From Reyranella aquatilis (GTDB lineage Bacteria; Pseudomonadota; Alphaproteobacteria; Reyranellales; Reyranellaceae): a stretch of DNA of 64,000 bases. A program made the translations under genes and the position numbers. Position 1 is the first letter of the stretch, and the number at the start of each line of letters is the position of its first letter. Below, one piece after another: positions 35,924 through 48,918 of this stretch. Under the pieces are notes generated by a model. That model ran no database searches and had not been told where the DNA came from. It saw only the letters and a list, made by a program, of their open reading frames with translations. The stretch spans positions 186,001 through 250,000 of the forward strand of contig NZ_JAJISD010000001.1 in assembly GCF_020880995.1 (NCBI RefSeq). The letters run 5' to 3'.

Positions 35924-37012
35924 GTGAGCGTCGCGAAGAGGGCGGTCTTCTATACGATCCTGGCGTTGATCGTCGGGGTTGCCCTGGAGATCGGCTCTTC
36001 GGCGTTTCTTTATGCCGTCCACAAGGACAGGATCGCGAGCCTGCCCGGGTCCCCGTCCGATCCGGCCATCCTGCTCGCGGCCAGGACGGGACTGAGCTGG
36101 CTGCTGCCCGGTTCGTTTCCCGATCCGGCGACCTATCGGCGCATGACACGGCAGCCGGCAGGCTTCTTCGCGGAGGATCGGGAGCAGGGGTATCGCGCCA
36201 ATCCGGGGCGGTACGTCTTCCGCTACAGCGGGCTGAAGCAGGGCAAGCCCGAGCATCTCGACGCGATCGTGACGATCAACCCAAACGGCACGCGGTTCAG
36301 CGGCTCGGCGCCGGTCGAACCCAGCCGGCGGATTTTCGTGCTGGGCGATTCCTACGTATTCGGCGATGGCGTGAACGACGAGCAGACCTTCGCCTTCCTG
36401 CTGCAGGCAGCTTTTCCCGACTCGGCGGTGGAGCTGCACGCGCTGGCCGGATACTCTTGGGCCAACGCGCTGGTCACGATGGATCGTATCAGGGACCGTG
36501 TCCGTCCCGGTGATGCGGTCGTGCTGGGCTATGCAGCCTACTACAAGGAGCGTCACGTCGCGGCGCCGTCGCGGCTGCGCAGCATTCGGGACTGGATGGC
36601 CTCGACCTTTCCCGAGGTCGAGCTCGACCCGAAGGACAGGCTTATCCGCGCCCGGCTCGACGACGCGAACCGGCTGGCCCTCGATACCATCCCGATGCAT
36701 TGCAAGTTCGATACGGCCTATTGCAACGGGCTCGCGCCGGACGGCGCCTATGTCGACCGGGTGTCACGCGAACTCCTGCGGGCCATCGCGTCGAAGACGG
36801 TCGGGAATATCCATCTCCTGCACATGTTCGGCCCAAAGGACGATCCTGTGCTGCGCGACCTACCCGCGAACGTTCGGCTGGTTGCGGCCACGCCGCAGGA
36901 CTTCAGCTACGTGATGCAGGACAACATCATGGGCCTCGACGATCACGGCGGACCATATTGGCACTACGCGATGTACTCGAAGCTGAAGCCGGTCATCGCC
37001 GCACGGCAATGA
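35924..37012 (+). CDS. Putative membrane-anchored SGNH/GDSL-type hydrolase
   Basis: A 362-residue protein starting at GTG 35924. Residues 8-32 form one hydrophobic helix, so the rest is likely periplasmic. An SGNH block I is seen as FVLGDSYVFGDGV with candidate nucleophile Ser143, and a candidate Asp340/His341 (or His347) in LDDHGGPYWH near the C-terminus. Similar proteins deacylate or acetylate surface polysaccharides, but no substrate can be given. It follows the second dehydrogenase by 12 bases, and its end overlaps the convergent MerR gene by 20 bases. Confidence 0.7.
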   Translation: MSVAKRAVFYTILALIVGVALEIGSSAFLYAVHKDRIASLPGSPSDPAILLAARTGLSWLLPGSFPDPATYRRMTRQPAGFFAEDREQGYRANPGRYVFRYSGLKQGKPEHLDAIVTINPNGTRFSGSAPVEPSRRIFVLGDSYVFGDGVNDEQTFAFLLQAAFPDSAVELHALAGYSWANALVTMDRIRDRVRPGDAVVLGYAAYYKERHVAAPSRLRSIRDWMASTFPEVELDPKDRLIRARLDDANRLALDTIPMHCKFDTAYCNGLAPDGAYVDRVSRELLRAIASKTVGNIHLLHMFGPKDDPVLRDLPANVRLVAATPQDFSYVMQDNIMGLDDHGGPYWHYAMYSKLKPVIAARQ

Positions 37013-37979
37013 CCCCCTCGCTGCGCGCCCGCACCTCGGGCGTGGCAAGACACGAAGCCAGCGCTTCATAGCCCGGCGTGCCCGGATAGGGCGCGACGCG
37101 GAACGGCTGCGCGTGGTTGGCCGGGCAGAAGAGCACCGTCTCGTAGGGACCCAGCGCATCGAGATCGAGGATCGACGAGGAACGGGTCATCACGAACAGC
37201 GGCGGCGCCGCGGGACCTCGGCGGCGCAAGTCGGCGATCAGCGCCTCCTGCGTGGGTTTATCCAGCCCTTGCTCGATCAGGTCGACGACGATGGGTACGG
37301 GCTCCGTGGTTTCGAGGCTGGCCAGCAGATCGACGAGCGCGGCCGAGTCCGTGGCGCCGTCCTCGACGAGCCGATCGACGGCCGGTCGAACTTTCGCCGC
37401 CCCCGCCGGGTCGGCACGGCGATCGAGCCCGACGAAGATGCCGCCCGACGCCTCGGCGATCCGCATGGCCAGCCGCGTCTTGCCGCTGCCCAGCGGTCCC
37501 GTGATGTAGGTGAGGGGGCGAATGTCGCGCAGTTCGAACCGCTCGCCGCCCCAGGGCCAGGGAAGATAGAACGCGATTCGCCGTTCCGGCGCGGCTGCCA
37601 GAAAACCCGCCAGTTCGCCGGCGCTGGGCGTCGCCCCGCGGGCAACGTCGCTGCGCAGGCGACGGACCCGGTCGATTGCGTCCACCAGTACGGGCAGCCG
37701 TGCTTCGAGTGTTCTCTGATGGGCTGTGAGCACCGGCCCAAGTCCGCGCGGATCGCCGGCCAGCACGCGAGCGACCTGAGCGAGGCTGAAGCCAAGGGCC
37801 CGCAAGGCGAGGATCTCCGATGCCCGCTCCAGGTCGTGGGGACCGTAGGCGCGCCAACCCGCCTCTGTGCGGATTGGCGTGAGCAGGCCGCGCTGCTCGT
37901 AGAGCCGTAGCGCCTTCGCGGAGATGCCGAGACGTCGCGCCGCCTCAGATGCGTTCAGGAATTCGCCGGAAGGGTTCAC
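36993..37979 (-). CDS. MerR-type regulator fused to a P-loop NTPase domain
   Basis: A 328-residue protein. Residues 8-75 form a MerR winged helix (LNASEAARRLGISAKALRLYEQRGLL) with a helical dimerisation segment to about 115. From residue 150 there is an ATPase-like domain with Walker A GPLGSGKT at 161-168 and a hydrophobic VPIVVDLIEQG strand at 228-238 as candidate Walker B. Normal MerR proteins have a small ligand domain instead. It has no adjacent target on the same strand; the region upstream is the long non-coding gap at 37,980-38,536. Confidence 0.82.
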   Translation of the reverse strand: MNPSGEFLNASEAARRLGISAKALRLYEQRGLLTPIRTEAGWRAYGPHDLERASEILALRALGFSLAQVARVLAGDPRGLGPVLTAHQRTLEARLPVLVDAIDRVRRLRSDVARGATPSAGELAGFLAAAPERRIAFYLPWPWGGERFELRDIRPLTYITGPLGSGKTRLAMRIAEASGGIFVGLDRRADPAGAAKVRPAVDRLVEDGATDSAALVDLLASLETTEPVPIVVDLIEQGLDKPTQEALIADLRRRGPAAPPLFVMTRSSSILDLDALGPYETVLFCPANHAQPFRVAPYPGTPGYEALASCLATPEVRARSEGVIAVRR

Positions 37980-38536
37980 GATCCACCTCGCTCAGTCGAT
38001 CGAAGCCTTATCAGGGCAGCCCCAAGGGCCGGGTCAACCGGCTTTTCCGTCCACAGCCACTTCGACTTGAGCGGATTGGTTTCTGCGCTGACGCGAAGTG
38101 CTGTGGAGAGGCTTTCTCTCCACGACCTGAACCTAAGGCATTGAAGCAACGTTACATTCAGTTAAGCCGCTGAACGGGCAGGTGCCGATTCCGTTCAAGC
38201 AAACTGCTGGGAAAACCTGCATCTGCCGATCCAGCATGCGCTCAGCCCGGCGGAATGACAGCCTTTTCTTCACGGGTTAATCTCGGGAGTATCAGCTCCG
38301 CTAACGAACCGGCACTTCAATCGCATACGCCACCATTGGTGGCATGATCGAGACCAAGCTCAATTCTCTAGACACGCGTGCGCAGGCGGGTGCAGATTTT
38401 GACTCTTAGCTGGCTCTGGAAAATGCTGCGTTACCGCCAGCCACAGATGAGTGATCGCGAGTTTTTGCCGATTGACCCCTCTCGCAGATGGCTAAAGAGG
38501 CGATGACACTGCTAGCGATCGGAAGGGGGAAGACAA
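37980..38536. other. Long non-coding gap before the 1208-residue gene
   Basis: This 557-base stretch has no convincing gene. It begins the region of visibly lower GC. It contains a perfect hairpin at 38103-38123 (arms GTGGAGAG/CTCTCCAC, loop GCTTT). Near its end are TTGACC at 38472 and TAAAGA at 38493 (15-base spacing, so a weak promoter candidate), and a strong ribosome-binding site GAAGGGGGAA before ATG 38537. It probably holds the promoters of the MerR fusion and of the 1208-residue gene. Confidence 0.6.
38103..38123. repeat. Perfect inverted repeat upstream of the MerR fusion gene
   Basis: Arms of 8 bases, GTGGAGAG and CTCTCCAC, separated by GCTTT. No T-run follows on either strand, so it is not a standard terminator. 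It lies 124 bases upstream of the MerR start and could be an operator, or a degenerate dispersed repeat resembling the GGAGAGATCTTCTCTC part at 61333-61348. Confidence 0.5.
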
Positions 38537-41500
38537 ATGAAACGATCGATATGCGTGGTGTCCGCGATGGCCTCGATGTTTGCTCTGGTCTGTGGCGCGA
38601 ATGCTGGTGCACAGGCCATTCCAGATTATCTCGACCTGATCAACCATTGCCCAACGACCGGCTCGCTGCAGCCACTCAAGGCAGCAGGACCCGGCCACCA
38701 CATTCAGAAGATCGACTCTGCGCTTAGCGACACCCTAATGCTGGACGAGTACGTGATCTATATCGAGGTGCTCCCCAAGGATGCAGCCGGGAAGACTACA
38801 ACACCCCAACAACTTCTGTCGCAAATTCGGGGAAAGTTTGATGAGTTCGCGCAGTCGCCAGAAACTTCGGTCTCTGCGTATCCATCGAAAGAAGAGCAGC
38901 TCTGGAACTCGCGTTCGCCAATCGGCGCGCTGCTGAAATTCGCCGTATCGCAAAACCTAGTTGGAGCAAGCGTCAAAGTTGAGGAGTTCATTGTCGTTCT
39001 AACCGAGCTTCAGGCGCGCCGCTTTCGTCTGTCCACCGCGTATTCCCCGCAGCCGCTTGTAGGAGGTCACCCCGTGAGCGGCGTACGTGAGTTTGGCATC
39101 CGCCCTAAAGGGAGGGGCTGGGAACTCTACACGCGCGCGGCCGATCGACCGACCGGAATCATCGATACGGCGCTTCAGGCTATCGTCTTTAAGGGCGCTG
39201 ATAACACCTGGCGGGCCTTCCAGTCTCGTATTGCCAGCCATGTTCAGACCAACGGCGGGCAGGCAACCGTAGTTGAACCGCGCCGGCAGTCCTTCAGCTG
39301 GAAGCGCGACGTCTTGGACAAGAATCTTTTGCGAGGCGTCTGCGCCGAACTTCGTAGTGCTTCCGGCACCAGCCTCGGCAGGGAGGGTTTAGAAACAGCC
39401 CTCATGCTTGTTGCCGAACGCGATGCCAGCCGGGTTACGGCGGCCCTTGTGGAGGTCGGTGCCTCGATGCTGAAGACAGCCTCTTCTCCCGCCGAAAGAG
39501 AGCGCGTGCTGGCGGATATTCGCACCGCGCATGCCGAAGCGGAGACAGCCGCGACTCCGGCCAAACTACTGGAAGTGATCGAGGCAAAATCAGGCCAATT
39601 TTTAAGTCTCAGCTATCGAACGTCGCAATGGGATGCAACGGTCCAGAGGTTCGCTGCAACCCGCAAGCTGTCCAATGTGGAAGCGTCGGGGATCAGTGCA
39701 CGCGCGCTCATTGCCTCGCTCCGGGACGCAGCCCTATCACCTCGGGATTTAAACCAACTCCTGAATGCCGCGACCGGCACTGCCGGAACACCGACGGCCG
39801 AGACGATCGCGTCCTTTATTGCCGATGGTGGCACCAGAGACGCCGTTGTGAAGCTCTTAAAGATGGAGCATCCTGACCGCGCGACGCTTGCTTCGCTAGG
39901 GAGTGCGCTGGTTGGCGAAACTACGGCTCGTAATCGCAATCTGGTGGACTTGATTCGGGCGGGCAGGACGCCTGGCGCGTATTCGCCTCTGACCATCGAC
40001 TTTCGCGAACTACGATCCCGGCAGGCGACCGCTGATTCGATAGTGTCGCGGGCTCGAACTTTAGCTGCTATGGCGAGCCTCCTCGGTGAACCAGCTGGGC
40101 GGGACGCGGCAAAGGTCGCGACTGCTGTCGAAAGCGGCATGGCGATCTACAACGCAGCTTCCCTCTTCGCTGCCGGCTCGACGAGCGGCGGGGTGATAAC
40201 GGCGATGGCCATTATGGGCGCCGCTGGTGGCCTATCTTCAGGAGACAACGGATCCGCTGCGCTCATGCAGGCCATTGCGGAACTCACCAGTCTCGTCCGA
40301 CAGGAATTTAAGCGCCTCAACCAGAGGCTAGACAGGATCGACGACGCGCTAGAAAGAATTGAAAAGGAACTGGCCGATCAGCGGAGATTGAGCAGCGAAA
40401 CATTACGGATTGCAGAAGAGACTAACGCTAGGGTCCTGCAATTGAGCGCGCGCGTCGATCGTCTTGAAGCCAACGTGATCGCAACGATAAGTAAATTCGC
40501 AACAGCTGAGTGTCTCAACTTCGTTTCCCTGCCGAGAAAGCCGAGTCAAGATCAATTTGAGAACTGCGCTCGGCTGTTCCAGATGTATGCCACTCAGACG
40601 CTGGAGGCGGTTGCGGTAGAGGACGGTCCGCTTCTTGATCAGCGCCTCGGAGTGAGTTTTCCGTTCGGCACTTGGCAGAGCAGCGACGCACTATGGCAAG
40701 GCGCAGGACTGATTGCGTCAAAGGCCGCTCGCTTGCTGGATCTGCACTCGGCAGCAAAGTATGCAGAGCGTAGTCGGCGAAACGAACTCGCAGCTCAACA
40801 TCTCCTTGTCCAGGGCACGAATCTCCTCCTGCTGCTAGCGCAGCGCCACGGTAGCGAGTGGTTCATGCGTTACCACGATCAATACGTCACGAGCTTCGAT
40901 TTGAGAGACGACTTACTCACTCGCTTGGAAGCGGTCGAGAGCTTTCAGAAATCGCTTCTGCCCGAGCGAGGCAAGAGACTGGATACAACGCTGAAAGTAG
41001 TAGACGCCCTGCAAGCTGCCGGGGGTTATGAGCAACTCACAAGACTTATCAAGGCGCAATCAGAAGAAGCAGTACGAAGGTACCTCCTACCCGAACTGGT
41101 TGGCGCGCTTGAATGGAAGGAGGACGATAAGCATCGCTTGATCGTCAACGGCTGTGAGAATCGTGACTCAACCTATCCCATCCTGACTTTTGCGAACGTT
41201 CTGACGACCCGACTTCCGCTGGAAGTAGCAATTCTCGGTTTCGTGTCAAGAGATGAACTCCTGCAGCCGTACATCAAGGGCACCCAAACCGTACCGACAA
41301 CCATTCCGAAAGGAGGGTTGCGAATTTGCGCTAAGGATGTGGTTGAGAACACGTCTTTGGGCTGGACCCCACCTATCAGACATTTGGTGAGCGGCAAATT
41401 GCAAGTGCATCAGCATGGCGTCCAACTGCTGCAGTCGAATGGGAAAGGAGAAATTCCCTATGGCAGTTCGGATTATGTCTCGTTTGAATCACGGGGATCG

Positions 41501-42163
41501 AGTGTAGTTCATCACCGACTTGTCACCGGGATTCTCGAGGATTTCTTCAAGCGTGACAAAGCCGCTGACCGAGCATACCAAGCTGTTGTCGACGCTTTCG
41601 TTCAATCTCGCGATTTGGGCGTTAGGCTCGCCGTTGCACATGCTCATCGTACGCTCCTGAGCAACGATGATTTTGCCCGACGCCAACTACACACGGCATT
41701 CGACATGATCCACGCTCTGCATGGTTTTCTACGAGGCTATCTGCCCCTTGCCTATCCTGCACTCTATGCGGCGCACGACGAGCTACGCGGATTTCTGGAG
41801 TCTGGTCCTGACGTCCGACTGCTCGATGCCGCTAGCTACTCGGAAGCACTTCGGTGCGCCGACGCTGTCTACTTGGACGTCTTCCCGAAGGGTATCAGCG
41901 AAGACGATATGAAGAGAGCCGCCGAGAACATCTTTAGGCACAACGAATGTCGCATCTTCTCGAATTTTCTCCAGGATTTCAGTTTGGGAGATTTGGCCGC
42001 CTATCTGGCGCCATCGCTTGAGCGTTTCCGTGAAGTATTGCGGAATGCCGACCTCGACAGCGCTGGGGATACGACCATCTCGAATACCGCCTGGCCGGCC
42101 GCTCGGTTGCGCGCCTTGATTCGCAACGGCGGCGACCCTACCTTTTGGAAAGAAATGCAGTAA
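38537..42163 (+). CDS. Large secreted protein of unknown function (1208 residues)
   Basis: I do not recognise this protein. A signal peptide (residues 1-26, cleavage after AGAQA) sends it to the periplasm or beyond. Residues 27-500 look largely helical with no known motif. A Gly/Ala-rich hydrophobic stretch at about 532-570 (SGGVITAMAIMGAAGG) is followed directly by a heptad-patterned coiled coil at about 585-655 (FKRLNQRLDRIDDALERIE). The C-terminal 550 residues are mixed helical, with few cysteines. Codon use is more AT-rich than in the neighbours and the gene stands alone between long non-coding gaps, which suggests transfer. A helix-rich pore-forming or scaffold protein is conceivable, unproven. 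Confidence 0.85.
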   Translation: MKRSICVVSAMASMFALVCGANAGAQAIPDYLDLINHCPTTGSLQPLKAAGPGHHIQKIDSALSDTLMLDEYVIYIEVLPKDAAGKTTTPQQLLSQIRGKFDEFAQSPETSVSAYPSKEEQLWNSRSPIGALLKFAVSQNLVGASVKVEEFIVVLTELQARRFRLSTAYSPQPLVGGHPVSGVREFGIRPKGRGWELYTRAADRPTGIIDTALQAIVFKGADNTWRAFQSRIASHVQTNGGQATVVEPRRQSFSWKRDVLDKNLLRGVCAELRSASGTSLGREGLETALMLVAERDASRVTAALVEVGASMLKTASSPAERERVLADIRTAHAEAETAATPAKLLEVIEAKSGQFLSLSYRTSQWDATVQRFAATRKLSNVEASGISARALIASLRDAALSPRDLNQLLNAATGTAGTPTAETIASFIADGGTRDAVVKLLKMEHPDRATLASLGSALVGETTARNRNLVDLIRAGRTPGAYSPLTIDFRELRSRQATADSIVSRARTLAAMASLLGEPAGRDAAKVATAVESGMAIYNAASLFAAGSTSGGVITAMAIMGAAGGLSSGDNGSAALMQAIAELTSLVRQEFKRLNQRLDRIDDALERIEKELADQRRLSSETLRIAEETNARVLQLSARVDRLEANVIATISKFATAECLNFVSLPRKPSQDQFENCARLFQMYATQTLEAVAVEDGPLLDQRLGVSFPFGTWQSSDALWQGAGLIASKAARLLDLHSAAKYAERSRRNELAAQHLLVQGTNLLLLLAQRHGSEWFMRYHDQYVTSFDLRDDLLTRLEAVESFQKSLLPERGKRLDTTLKVVDALQAAGGYEQLTRLIKAQSEEAVRRYLLPELVGALEWKEDDKHRLIVNGCENRDSTYPILTFANVLTTRLPLEVAILGFVSRDELLQPYIKGTQTVPTTIPKGGLRICAKDVVENTSLGWTPPIRHLVSGKLQVHQHGVQLLQSNGKGEIPYGSSDYVSFESRGSSVVHHRLVTGILEDFFKRDKAADRAYQAVVDAFVQSRDLGVRLAVAHAHRTLLSNDDFARRQLHTAFDMIHALHGFLRGYLPLAYPALYAAHDELRGFLESGPDVRLLDAASYSEALRCADAVYLDVFPKGISEDDMKRAAENIFRHNECRIFSNFLQDFSLGDLAAYLAPSLERFREVLRNADLDSAGDTTISNTAWPAARLRALIRNGGDPTFWKEMQ

Positions 42164-43025
42164 GAGATCGGCCTTTCGTGTGTGGCTTGCCTTGGACTGG
42201 AAAAGTTATCACTGCAGGTGCAACCGTTTGAAGGGGACGGAAACGGTACGGCCTTGATCAGTGTCAACAAAGATGGAGGTGTACCTCCTCAAGACGACAC
42301 AGAAAGGTTTCGAATGGCCAAACCAGTGATACGACTGGAGCACTATCACGTACTCACGATGAGTATAACGAAGAAGGTATCCGCTCAGTTGCTTATGGCT
42401 TGTCGTCACCCCCGCGCGGCCGCGCTCCGTATTTCGAGGGAACACCGGGATGGTGCTCCTCTTGAACTGATTCATTCCAGTTGGTGGTCGCTGAAGTGAC
42501 GCTCGTACCGCGTACGCAATCAGGGTGCGCCGCAGCCACTAAGCGCGAGCAATTTGACCCGACCTAACGCCGTAATCGTTCCGAACGATCGCGTGAAGCT
42601 TGACTCTTCGTCGTGGAGAATACGACGACCATTTCGGAGATGCGTGCAAGTTCGCGTACTAAGATATCTAAATCTTTCACGTCCGATTTGGATGAGCGAC
42701 TACCCCGGTGATAGTCACCCAGCGACTCTCCGGATTGCAACAGAACGCCACTAGGAAATCTCCGGCCACGCCGCGTCAGCACACTGATTGTGAGGAAATA
42801 GATATCAAATGATGATTGCAGGCGCGATATTGCGCCCTTAGGAGCTGGGTGCGTGCGCAATGTTGATTCCCAACGGGAATCCCATCAAGCAGGCGTGAGC
42901 AAGGGTTCGGTATAGCGCTCAAGTCCGGTGGGGTTGTCGCTGTGGTCAATGAGAGTGCTGACGCTAGCATGTTGAAATTGGGTCTCGACGCTCTTTGGAA
43001 TGACGGCTCGGTGGGAGAAAGGTTA
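42164..43025. other. Long non-coding, lower-GC gap after the 1208-residue gene
   Basis: These 862 bases contain no gene I can support. Short open frames exist at 42182-42499 (+), 42209-42475 (-) and 42564-42860 (-), none with a recognisable domain, good ribosome-binding site or neighbour support. No tRNA, transposase remnant or clear terminal repeat was seen. The base composition matches the preceding gene rather than the genome, so it is probably the decayed end of an acquired segment. GAGAAAGG just before 43026 serves the next gene. Confidence 0.55.
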
Positions 43026-44048
43026 ATGGACTACCGCAACCTCGGCCGTGCCGGCCTGAAAGTCTCCGAGATCTGCCTGGGCACGATGACCTTCGGCAAT
43101 GGCGCCGACCAGGAAGGTGCGACGAAGATGGTGAACGCCGCGCTAGATGCGGGCGTGAACTTCTTCGACACGGCCAATTCCTATGTCGGCGGCACCTCGG
43201 AAACGATGCTGGGTGTCGCGTTGAAGGGTAAGCGCGAGGACGCCATCATCGCCTCCAAGTTCTTCAATCCGATGGGCGGGCGGCCCAACGATTCCGGTAT
43301 GTCGCGACTGCACATCAAGCAGCAGATCGAGGGCTCGCTGAAGCGGCTGCAGACCGATTACATCGACATTTACTACATCCATCACGTCGACCATCAGACG
43401 CCGCTCGAGGAGATGCTGCGGGCGCTCGACGATCTCGTTCGCGACGGCAAGATCCTCTACACGGCCTGCTCGAACTTCGAGGCGTGGCGCCTGATGGAGG
43501 CGCTGTGGATCAGCGACACCAGGGGCTGGGAGCGCTTCGCGGCCTACCAACCGCAGTACAGCCTCGTGGTCCGCGACATCGACGAAGAGATCGTGCCTGC
43601 GCTGCAGCTCAAGGGGCTGGGCTGTGTGGCCTGGTCGCCGCTCGGCAGCGGCTATCTCGCGGGCAAGTACACGCCGGGCAATCTCACGGTGCAGGGGAGC
43701 CGCTCGGCCGAGGGGTGGGGCTTCCAGAGCAAGTTCTTCGCGCGCAACCACGGCGAAATCTTGCAGACCCTGCTCGACACGGCGAAGGAGCTGGGCAAGC
43801 CCCCGGCCGAGGTCGCGCTGCGCTGGGTGATGGACCAGCCCTTCATGACCAGCGCCATCGTCGGTGCGCGCAATGCCGAGCAGCTCAGCGAGACGCTGAA
43901 GGCGGGTGGCTGGCGCCTGCCCACGGATGCACTCGCGAAGCTGAACGCCGTCTCCGCCCAAGCGCACAAATACCCGCGCGCCTTCGAGGATCCCATGCCC
44001 CAGCGCCGCGCGAGTGCGCTCAAGATGCCCGGGATGCCGAAGGCCTAG
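43026..44048 (+). CDS. Aldo/keto reductase
   Basis: A 340-residue NADPH-dependent oxidoreductase with the TIM-barrel tetrad Asp48 and Tyr53 (FFDTANSY), Lys78 (ASKFFN) and His119 or His120 (YYIHHVDH). The C-terminal cofactor segment SAIVGARNAEQLSETL is present. It resembles the YajO/Tas and perakine-reductase-like branch that reduces aldehydes and ketones. ATG 43026 (MDYRNLGRAGLKVSE) is the conserved family start, after GAGAAAGG. Its composition returns to the genome's high GC. Its stop overlaps that of the convergent secreted protein gene. Confidence 0.93.
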   Translation: MDYRNLGRAGLKVSEICLGTMTFGNGADQEGATKMVNAALDAGVNFFDTANSYVGGTSETMLGVALKGKREDAIIASKFFNPMGGRPNDSGMSRLHIKQQIEGSLKRLQTDYIDIYYIHHVDHQTPLEEMLRALDDLVRDGKILYTACSNFEAWRLMEALWISDTRGWERFAAYQPQYSLVVRDIDEEIVPALQLKGLGCVAWSPLGSGYLAGKYTPGNLTVQGSRSAEGWGFQSKFFARNHGEILQTLLDTAKELGKPPAEVALRWVMDQPFMTSAIVGARNAEQLSETLKAGGWRLPTDALAKLNAVSAQAHKYPRAFEDPMPQRRASALKMPGMPKA

Positions 44049-46225: not shown

Positions 46226-46238
46226 CGGGACTCTCCTT

Positions 46239-47369
46239 CTACTCGAAATAGTGGGGAACGAAGCGGCTGGTATTGTGGGTGATGCGCCGTTCATCCTCGC
46301 GCATGCCGATGCCCGCCGACTTGCCGCCGATCACCCAGGATCCTACTAGCGCGTGATTGCCGTCGAATACCGGCAGGGGCTCGTAAGCCTGCCAGACATA
46401 GCCCTCGGCGCCGTACGCGCCGGGCGCGGTATCGAACACACCCGGGCCGACGACGGTCACGTTATGGCCTTCGCGGCCGAATACAGGCTTCTTGACGAAA
46501 GCGCGGCCGAGGTCGGGATGTTCGCTGTCGAAGCTCGGCAGCAGATGGGGGTGACCGGGAAAGCCTTCCCACAGCAGGGGCAGGATCATCTTGTTGGACA
46601 GGATCAGCTTCCAGACCGGCTCGATGAAGGCGGTACCGTCCTTGGGCACGAAGGCCCCGAATGCCTCGCGCATCATCCATTCCCACGGGTAGAGCTTGGA
46701 TAGGACCTGGATCGGTACCTCGTCCGGATCGGTGAAGCGCTGCCCGTTCCAGCCGATCTCGGCCACCGTCAGCGTCTTGGTTTTCAGGCCCGCCTGGATC
46801 GCCGTATCGCGAAGATACTCCGAGGTGGCGAGATCCTCCGGGTGGTTTTCGAAGCGTGCGAAATGCACGACCGATTGCGGCGAGAGGCGGGAGCCGACCT
46901 CCTTCCATGCATCGATCAGCTTTTCGTGGATCGAATTGAACTGGTCGGCGGCCGGCTTCACATCCTTCAGCCAGTACCATTGCACGACCGCAGCCTCGTA
47001 GAGGGATGTCGGCGTATCGGCGTTGTATTCGAGCATCTTCGGCGGATTGCGGCCGTCATAGACCAGGTCGAAGCGGCCGCTGATGGTCGGATCGGAACGC
47101 CGCCAGACCTCGGTGATGTAGTCGCCCCACGACGGCGGGATCTTCATCCACTCCCAGAGCCTGTTGGCCACGACATGCTCCACAGCCTGGAGGCAGAGAG
47201 CATGGAGTTGCTCGGTCGCGGCTTCCAGTTCGTCGATCTGGCCGGCGGTGAAGGCGTAGCAGGCCTGCTCGGTCCAGTAGGCCTTGCCGTCGAGCGTGTA
47301 GAAATCGAAGCCGAGCGCCTCGACCTTGCTCTGCCATCCCGGACGCGGCGTGATCGTCTCGCGGCGCAT
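46239..47369 (-). CDS. Glutathionylspermidine synthase-like ATP-grasp ligase (YgiC/YjfC type)
   Basis: A 376-residue protein corresponding to the C-terminal synthetase domain of Gsp without the amidase domain. Recognised from RFDLVYDGRNPPKMLEYNADTPTSLYEAA, PLLWEGFPGHPHLLPSF, FVKKPVFGREGHNV and the C-terminal GIGMREDE and ITHNTSRFVPHY. It would ligate an amine to a carboxylate using ATP; E. coli YgiC and YjfC relatives do not make glutathionylspermidine, and their product is unclear. Its start overlaps the DUF1190-like gene stop (TGATG). Confidence 0.92.
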   Translation of the reverse strand: MRRETITPRPGWQSKVEALGFDFYTLDGKAYWTEQACYAFTAGQIDELEAATEQLHALCLQAVEHVVANRLWEWMKIPPSWGDYITEVWRRSDPTISGRFDLVYDGRNPPKMLEYNADTPTSLYEAAVVQWYWLKDVKPAADQFNSIHEKLIDAWKEVGSRLSPQSVVHFARFENHPEDLATSEYLRDTAIQAGLKTKTLTVAEIGWNGQRFTDPDEVPIQVLSKLYPWEWMMREAFGAFVPKDGTAFIEPVWKLILSNKMILPLLWEGFPGHPHLLPSFDSEHPDLGRAFVKKPVFGREGHNVTVVGPGVFDTAPGAYGAEGYVWQAYEPLPVFDGNHALVGSWVIGGKSAGIGMREDERRITHNTSRFVPHYFE

Positions 47370-47740
47370 CAGCTGGATCCGGTCGAGCCCGAGCTACCGA
47401 AGCCGCCGCGCTGGCTGCCCGTCGCAGCCGGCGTATTGGCCGTGCCCGTGGAGCTGCTGCCGCTCCGGATGCCACTGCCGCCGGAGCCGCTTCCCGATCC
47501 CGTGGCCTGCTGCTGGCAATTCGGCGCCCCCGGAGGGCACGTCGTCGTCACCTGCTGACGATTGAAGGGATTTCCAAGGAACCACAGGAACGGCAGGGCG
47601 CCGACGCCGCCGGTGGCCGACGCACAGGAATAGAGGACGGCCGCCGCACCGGCACCCATGAGGGCGAGTTTCACCGTGCGCGACATGCGCGACGGACCGC
47701 GTTCGGGCGGGCGGTGCGGGGAAGGATCGGGCAGGGACAT
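47369..47740 (-). CDS. Small DUF1190/YgiB-like putative lipoprotein
   Basis: A 123-residue protein. A hydrophobic stretch near residues 22-36 ends in VLYSC, an imperfect lipobox, and the tail is Gly/Ser-rich with SQRGGFGSSG, like the C-terminal RGGFG of E. coli YgiB (DUF1190). The neighbours support this: it lies between a DUF350 gene and a YgiC/YjfC-type ligase, the same trio as E. coli yjfL-yjfM-yjfC. It is about half the length of YgiB. The family assignment is by context and short motif only. Confidence 0.6.
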   Translation of the reverse strand: MSLPDPSPHRPPERGPSRMSRTVKLALMGAGAAAVLYSCASATGGVGALPFLWFLGNPFNRQQVTTTCPPGAPNCQQQATGSGSGSGGSGIRSGSSSTGTANTPAATGSQRGGFGSSGSTGSS

Positions 47741-47742
47741 AG

Positions 47743-48153
47743 TCAATAGGTCAGGCAGGCGGCGTTGATCAGGCCAAAGCAGGCCGCGAAGCCACCCGCC
47801 GTGACGCCTGAAGCCATCCGGTCCGCCTCGATCGACTGCATCAGGTTCGGCAGCAGGAAACGCAGGCCGACATGGACCAGCGCCTGGACGACCAGAGCGA
47901 CACCGGCCCACAGGACGAGATCGGTGAGGCTGGCCGAATGCGCGATGGTATTGGCCAGCGGCAGGCAGAAGCCGAGCAGGGCACCGACGAGCGCGACCGC
48001 CGCGGCGGTGTTGCCTTGGCGGATCAGCGCGAATTCCCGCCAGGGGGTCAGAAGAGTGTAAACCCAGATGAAAACGAAGAGCAGCGCGAAGCTCACCACG
48101 ATGTAGCGGGCGAAATTCGGAATGGCGGCGAGCAGCCATTGCAGCTCGGGCAT
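47743..48153 (-). CDS. DUF350 membrane protein (YjfL-like)
   Basis: A 136-residue protein with four hydrophobic helices. The motif GNTAAAVALVGALLGFCLPLANTIAHS in the second helix pair is typical of DUF350 (given here in part as GFCLPLANTIAHS). Function is unknown in all organisms known to me. It starts 12 bases after the SDR stop and ends two bases before the DUF1190-like gene, inside the operon. Confidence 0.9.
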   Translation of the reverse strand: MPELQWLLAAIPNFARYIVVSFALLFVFIWVYTLLTPWREFALIRQGNTAAAVALVGALLGFCLPLANTIAHSASLTDLVLWAGVALVVQALVHVGLRFLLPNLMQSIEADRMASGVTAGGFAACFGLINAACLTY

Positions 48154-48165
48154 CGATTGCCTCCA

Positions 48166-48918
48166 TCAGCCGTGCATCGTCAGGCCACCGGAGACGCTGA
48201 GGGTCTGGCCGGTGATGAAGCCCGCATCGTCGCTCGCCAGGAAGCAGACCGCACCCGGAATATCCTCGGGCTGGCCGACACGCTTCATCGGGATGGCGCC
48301 GACCAGGGCCGCACGGACCTTCTGTCCGCGCTCGTCGTCGCCGGCGACGGCGGCCAGAAGGGGGGTGTCCGTCGGGCCGGGGCAGACCGCGTTCAGCGTG
48401 ATACCCTTCCGGGCGACCTCGCGCGCCACGGTCTTGGTGAAGGCGATGATGCCGCCTTTACAGGCCGAATAGACGGCCTCCTGCGAGGATCCGACGCGGC
48501 CCGCGTCCGATGCGATGTTGACGATGCGCCCGCTGCCGCGCGCGACCATGCCCTTCAGCACGACGTGGCTCATGTTGAGCGGTCCGCGCAGGTTGATGGC
48601 GATAAGCTGGTCCCACAGGTCGGGCGTGGTATCGACGAAGTTGACGAAGCGGTCCCAGCCCGCGTTGTTCACCAGGATGTCGGTCGGACCGACCGTCACC
48701 TCGAACGCGGCGATGGCTCTTCCGACGGCCGCGTAGTCGGCGATATCGACGCCCGAGGCGTAGCCGCCGATTTCGCCGGCGATCTTCTTTGCCCCGTCGA
48801 GGTTCTTGTCGAAGACCCCGACCCGCGCGCCGTAGCCTGCGAAGCGCCGGCAGATGGCGCTCCCGATGGCGCCCGCGCCGCCGGTCACGATGACGTTCTT
48901 ACCTTCGAGACCACGCAT
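48166..48918 (-). CDS. SDR-family dehydrogenase, BadH-like
   Basis: A 250-residue NAD(P)-dependent short-chain dehydrogenase: cofactor motif TGGAGAIGSAICRRF at residues 12-26, NNAGWD, catalytic Ser/Tyr/Lys around NIASDAGR and YSACKGG, and C-terminal FITGQTLSVSGGLTMHG. The NNAGWD, IASDAGRVGSS and VSGGLTM features closely recall BadH, the 2-hydroxycyclohexanecarboxyl-CoA dehydrogenase of Rhodopseudomonas. That fits the acyl-CoA theme of the block, but no other alicyclic-acid pathway gene is certain nearby. It heads the tight six-gene run to 44,045. Confidence 0.9.
   Translation of the reverse strand: MRGLEGKNVIVTGGAGAIGSAICRRFAGYGARVGVFDKNLDGAKKIAGEIGGYASGVDIADYAAVGRAIAAFEVTVGPTDILVNNAGWDRFVNFVDTTPDLWDQLIAINLRGPLNMSHVVLKGMVARGSGRIVNIASDAGRVGSSQEAVYSACKGGIIAFTKTVAREVARKGITLNAVCPGPTDTPLLAAVAGDDERGQKVRAALVGAIPMKRVGQPEDIPGAVCFLASDDAGFITGQTLSVSGGLTMHG

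What the first reader, a model, noticed from the sequence alone, without database searches (positions are those of the whole stretch)
38000..43025. Lower-GC islet with an unrecognised 1208-residue secreted protein
The sequence shows one large gene with signal peptide, no known motif, a Gly/Ala-rich hydrophobic stretch (about 532-570) followed at once by a long coiled coil (about 585-655), AT-richer codons than all neighbours, and non-coding gaps of 557 and 862 bases on either side. A hydrophobic hairpin next to a coiled coil is an arrangement found in helical pore-forming and membrane-remodelling proteins, but that is inference.
Basis: partly seen in the sequence, partly recalled or inferred. 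Interest (0 to 1): 0.78.

Follow-up and report, generated by a model that had tools for sequence, protein, structure and literature searches.

The report
Imported gene with exported START-like domain
A single large gene has been inserted cleanly between two ordinary genes of an alphaproteobacterium; it encodes a probably exported protein that begins with a rare, previously uncatalogued ligand-pocket domain shared by very distant bacteria and archaea, while the rest of the protein has no known relative.

Summary
A 1208-codon ORF (38537-42163, +), with a signal peptide and a strong Shine-Dalgarno site, lies in a low-GC islet (about 0.55 against 0.66). Nine congeneric genomes show the empty site: the flanking MerR-type regulator and aldo/keto reductase genes are contiguous there. 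The islet is a local insertion, 38058-43025 (4968 bp), that replaced a spacer of roughly 50-65 bp. No relative was found in 64 other genomes of the genus. I saw no terminal repeats, tRNA, integrase or transposase. New finding: residues about 27-256 form a family absent from Pfam, NCBIfam and PHROGs. Its other members found come from Azospirillum, Nisaea, Streptomyces, another alphaproteobacterium, and Bacteroidetes, archaeal and unnamed bacterial MAGs. The held-out test for the window domain gives E 4.5e-37. The domain is predicted to have the helix-grip (START/Bet v 1-like) fold, whose known members bind hydrophobic ligands. Three members lie beside mobility or type VI secretion genes. Residues 257-1208 are an orphan: Ala-rich stretch, borderline hydrophobic segment 541-561, coiled coil about 576-650, mostly helical C-terminus. 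The pore-forming idea is neither supported nor excluded. Best reading: a horizontally acquired, exported ligand-binding multidomain protein.

The parts
38058..43025 (.). Inserted islet (4968 bp) that replaces the short intergenic spacer (roughly 50-65 bp) seen in relatives
   Evidence: Collinearity with 9 congeneric genomes stops near 38057 and resumes at 43026; no match listed inside the islet in 64 congeners
38537..42163 (+). 1208-aa ORF, single copy in the genome
38521..38529 (+). Shine-Dalgarno-like GGAAGGGGG, 7 bases before the ATG
   Evidence: sequence
38537..38614 (+). Predicted Sec signal peptide (residues 1-26, AQA/IPD)
   Evidence: Reading of the sequence plus hydropathy peak 1.89 at residues 5-23; no dedicated predictor available
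38615..39304 (+). START/Bet v 1-like (helix-grip) domain, residues 27-256; new family
   Evidence: 8-member family, held-out E 4.5e-37 for the window member; AF2 pLDDT 77.9, pTM 0.80; Foldseek and VIA matches
39062..39148 (+). Family signature GGHPVSGVREFGI...YTRAADR (residues 176-204)
   Evidence: G176, H178, P179, G182, R184, F186, G187, T199, R204 invariant in 8 sequences
39305..40129 (+). Residues 257-531: Ala-rich stretch, probably helical, no relatives
   Evidence: Pfam: no match to residues 254-535 better than E 7; helical nature inferred from composition
40157..40219 (+). Borderline hydrophobic Gly/Ala segment, residues 541-561
   Evidence: max 19-residue mean hydropathy 1.38
40253..40504 (+). 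Coiled coil / long helix, residues 573-656
   Evidence: heptad test; one helix about 570-663 in a low-confidence model; weak coiled-coil hits in the libraries
40505..42160 (+). Residues 657-1208: orphan, mostly helical C-terminal region
   Evidence: No convincing relative in 240 class genomes, plasmids or viral contigs; full-length protein has no match in phages
36993..37979 (-). Left flank: MerR-type regulator
   Evidence: PF13411 E 9.9e-17
43026..44048 (+). Right flank: aldo/keto reductase; its ATG abuts the right end of the insertion
   Evidence: PF00248 E 2.3e-75; alignment

Best explanation
A single-gene DNA islet acquired from outside the genus inserted between a regulator and an aldo/keto reductase gene. 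It encodes a Sec-exported multidomain protein. The N-terminal domain (residues 27-256) has a START/Bet v 1-like pocket and most likely binds a lipid or another large hydrophobic molecule in the periplasm or outside the cell. The coiled coil (about 576-650) most likely makes the protein oligomerise, and the weakly hydrophobic segment before it may lean on a membrane. Together they would form an envelope-associated ligand-handling or sensing protein. Shown: the insertion, the ORF, the domain family. Predicted: fold, export, coiled coil. Inferred: ligand binding, oligomerisation, membrane contact, biological role.
For: Empty sites in 9 relatives; flanks mostly 82-95% identical per kb (lowest 77% next to the islet) to two close relatives over about 15-20 kb each side, so the change is local; foreign composition; absence in 64 congeners by a full-length and a profile search. 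Domain family across very distant taxa, held-out tests E 1e-23 to 2e-39 for all eight members. Fold: AF2 pTM 0.80; Foldseek against PDB, E 8e-5 to 1e-3, the top 50 rows being Bet v 1/PR-10, PYR/PYL, START, aromatase/cyclase and similar proteins; VIA Z 11.0, rmsd 3.4, 159 residues aligned to PYR1. Known members of this fold bind large hydrophobic compounds (PMC2577659). Mobility genes near two family members: relaxase and T4SS coupling protein, phage integrase.
Against: A shared fold shows no function. The fold rests on the best of five models (mean pLDDT 77.9, the others 68 to 48) from six sequences. TM-scores normalised by the query are low (about 0.4). Some relatives appear to lack a signal peptide, so export is not a constant of the family. 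About 950 residues of the protein are unexplained. No mobile-element machinery is left in the islet.
Confidence: 0.45

Rival explanations
1. Helical pore-forming or membrane-remodelling protein: the Gly/Ala hydrophobic segment inserts in a membrane and the adjacent coiled coil assembles the pore.
For: The arrangement hydrophobic segment then coiled coil is present; probably exported; sporadic foreign gene.
Against: The segment is only borderline hydrophobic (1.38); no Pfam pore-former model matches; no usable model of the region.
Confidence: 0.12
2. Secretion-system cargo or accessory factor for interbacterial competition: the START-like domain travels with secretion systems, and the window gene is an exported relative of such a factor.
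For: The Azospirillum relative is annotated directly after hcp inside a type VI secretion cluster.
Against: No Hcp gene found in this genome; the protein has a Sec signal; no type VI genes were recognised beside the other members (by reading and partial Pfam scans).
Confidence: 0.12
3. Structural or scaffolding envelope protein in which the START-like domain is only a docking module.
For: Long coiled coil and large, mostly helical C-terminus.
Against: The strongly conserved HPxxGxRxFG...YTRxxxR signature suggests more than a passive shell.
Confidence: 0.2
4. Non-functional foreign DNA recently captured and not yet decayed.
For: Foreign composition and long non-coding flanks; single-species presence.
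Against: Full-length ORF without interruption, good ribosome site, signal peptide, and family signature residues intact.
Confidence: 0.11

Closest known systems
START / SRPBCC / Bet v 1-like (helix-grip) superfamily
   Same: Predicted order strand, two helices, antiparallel strands, long C-terminal helix; Foldseek and VIA matches to PYR1, Bet v 1 and bacterial members
   Different: No Pfam family of the superfamily matches by sequence; this family has its own HPxxGxRxFG...YTR signature, an extra N-terminal helical part and an extra C-terminal strand; the window protein carries a signal peptide and about 950 further residues
Hypothetical protein WP_144243666.1, Azospirillum argentinense plasmid AbAZ39_p3
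   Same: Same domain family, held-out E 1.3e-38
   Different: 216 aa stand-alone, no signal peptide apparent, sits between hcp and tssG in a type VI cluster
Nisaea nitritireducens 248-aa protein (NZ_JACZFS010000001.1)
   Same: Signal-peptide-like start plus this domain, alignable end to end with the window N-terminus (25% identity, E 1e-16)
   Different: Stand-alone; on a contig with relaxase and T4SS coupling protein genes; no coiled coil
Alpha-helical pore-forming proteins
   Same: Hydrophobic segment beside a coiled coil
   Different: No sequence match; weak hydrophobicity; N-terminal START-like domain

Membership tests
New HPxxGxRxFG domain family | Profile match with the window member held out | tested here: met
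   E 4.5e-37, 130 bits
New HPxxGxRxFG domain family | Invariant G, H, P, G, R, F, G, T, R, W positions | tested here: met
START/Bet v 1-like superfamily | Helix-grip fold | tested here: met
   Predicted model only:
START/Bet v 1-like superfamily | Sequence match to a curated family of the superfamily (helpful, not required: the superfamily is defined by fold) | tested here: not met
   No Pfam match of the superfamily for any of 8 members at E up to 5
START/Bet v 1-like superfamily | Hydrophobic-ligand binding | not testable with these tools
   needs biochemistry
Alpha pore-forming proteins | Sequence match to a known pore-former family | tested here: not met
   Pfam and PDB sequences
Alpha pore-forming proteins | Membrane-inserting hydrophobic hairpin | tested here: inconclusive
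   borderline segment 541-561, no reliable model
Type VI secretion cargo | Type VI genes in the genome or locus | tested here: not met
   No Hcp (PF05638) found in the genome; other Tss proteins not searched
Transposon / integrase island at a tRNA | Terminal repeats, recombinase, tRNA | tested here: not met

The most novel reading that the evidence does not exclude
A mobile, exported device in which a START-like pocket senses or loads a lipid and thereby drives membrane insertion or lipid movement by the attached hydrophobic segment and coiled coil: a ligand-gated membrane-active protein of a kind not described.
Probability: 0.1. Interest if true: 0.82.

Novelty: new variant of a known kind. 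Interest (0 to 1): 0.52.

Why it matters
It defines an uncatalogued START/Bet v 1-like domain family, found so far in 8 loci spread over Alphaproteobacteria, Streptomyces, Bacteroidetes and an archaeal MAG, several beside mobility or secretion genes. It also shows one member built into a large, probably exported protein and inserted as a single gene at a precisely mappable empty site. If the pocket binds a lipid outside the cytoplasm, it would be a mobile envelope lipid-handling module.

Tried and rejected
Full-length searches of 398 phylum and 385 class genomes gave one clear relative, the N-domain only; plasmids, phages and viral contigs gave none for the full length or the C-terminus. Weak hits were checked in part: two were valyl-tRNA synthetase coiled-coil tails and others coiled-coil or unrelated proteins, rejected; one (G388) proved to be a true family member. 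The one search hit in a congener (E 0.008) lies in a methyltransferase-like frame, rejected. Weak SesA, PigL_N, JetA, occludin and SMC-like hits at 573-681 are coiled-coil matches, below the curated cut-off where one exists, rejected. Two large secreted neighbours in Nisaea do not resemble the window protein. A single-sequence model of 505-1208 is unusable, so no fold search was done with it. A recombination boundary in the flanks was considered: the drop in identity is confined to about 2 kb next to the islet and is also seen between the two relatives themselves, so it was not pursued. No RNA family, tRNA, terminal repeat or promoter above chance was found. No neighbour gene common to the 8 loci was found apart from the domain itself (a few housekeeping-type pairs only). 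The BFVD search gave one weak match. Literature searches gave nothing on this family.

Full report
Observation. The ORF at 38537-42163 (+) exists as described: 1208 codons, ATG, a good Shine-Dalgarno sequence and a signal-peptide-like start. A frame of this length has a chance probability of about 1e-20 at its base composition. GC falls to 0.53-0.61 over 38-43 kb against 0.61-0.72 in the rest of the window. GC3 is 0.60 against about 0.8-0.9 in most neighbours, and codon use is the least adapted of the genes compared. The gaps of 557 and 862 bp are correct.

Islet. The gene is single copy in a 6.0 Mb, 99.8% complete genome. Full-length and profile searches found no relative in 64 other genomes of the genus (the one weak hit, E 0.008, was rejected). 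In nine congeners the flanks are contiguous: similarity runs to about window 38057 on the left and resumes at 43026 on the right, with roughly 50-65 bp between where the left match reaches that far. The insertion therefore spans about 38058-43025 and replaced the original spacer. Its right end abuts the reductase ATG and carries a ribosome-site-like GGGAGAAAGG. Identity of the flanks to the two closest relatives is mostly 82-95% per kb over about 15-20 kb each side, with a dip to 77-82% in the last kb or two before the islet, so the event is local. No terminal inverted or direct repeat, tRNA, integrase, transposase or RNA family was found. How it entered is unknown. The class is Alphaproteobacteria, inferred because genome G171, listed as same class, has the same 22,325-base contig as Nisaea nitritireducens. 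The genus is not named by the tools.

N-terminal domain. A 248-aa secreted stand-alone protein of Nisaea aligns with residues 8-253 (E 1e-16). Profile and pattern searches then added a 239-aa protein in another alphaproteobacterium, an Azospirillum plasmid protein, and loci of Streptomyces, a Bacteroidetes MAG, a Thaumarchaeota MAG and an unnamed bacterial MAG. MAG taxonomy is as given in the record titles. Eight sequences share G, H, P, G, R, F, G, T, R and W at fixed positions. Leave-one-out profiles recover every member at E 1e-23 to 2e-39, with no shuffled decoy reported beside it. None matches Pfam, NCBIfam or PHROGs convincingly. A model from window plus five relatives has pLDDT 77.9 and pTM 0.80, with strand, two helices, antiparallel strands, a 28-residue helix and a last strand. 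Foldseek against the PDB returns Bet v 1, PR-10, PYR/PYL, aromatase/cyclase and START proteins (E 8e-5 and up); VIA gives Z 11.0, rmsd 3.4 over 159 residues with PYR1. Proteins of this fold typically bind large hydrophobic ligands (PMC2577659). That the window domain does so is inference.

Context of the family. The Nisaea member lies on a contig with a relaxase and a T4SS coupling protein. One MAG member is next to a phage integrase. The Azospirillum member is between hcp and tssG. The Streptomyces member follows a PG_binding_1-like stretch in another frame; whether that is a real fusion is not settled. No neighbour common to the loci was found other than the domain itself. No Hcp was found in this genome, so a type VI role is unlikely here.

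Rest of the protein. Residues 257-1208 have no convincing relatives in the collections searched. The hydrophobic stretch is borderline. The coiled coil is best supported at 576-620, and a low-confidence model draws one helix over about 570-663. The pore-forming idea stays open but unsupported.

Verdict. A real foreign single-gene islet, and a new START/Bet v 1-like domain family with a large, probably exported member. The mechanism (ligand binding by the N-domain, coiled-coil assembly, possible membrane contact) is the most likely reading but mostly inferred.

Noticed in passing
window about 46230-48240: This stretch also finds no match in two close relatives whose flanking DNA aligns on both sides; it holds a glutathionylspermidine synthase-like gene (PF03738, 46239-47369 -) and a frame of low GC3 (47369-48166 -).
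   Followed up: partly
window 43000-43026: The insertion replaced the whole spacer before the aldo/keto reductase, so that gene may now be expressed from islet DNA.
   Followed up: no
L031:2712-10501: Two adjacent giant secreted ORFs (1355 and 1241 aa) near the Nisaea homolog, without Pfam matches above cut-off, close to conjugation genes.
   Followed up: partly
L046:7264-8402: Streptomyces homolog preceded by a PG_binding_1-like stretch in a different frame (frameshift or sequencing error).
   Followed up: partly
L045:8028-8678: A stand-alone member of the domain family without an apparent signal peptide sits between hcp and tssG in an Azospirillum type VI cluster.
   Followed up: partly
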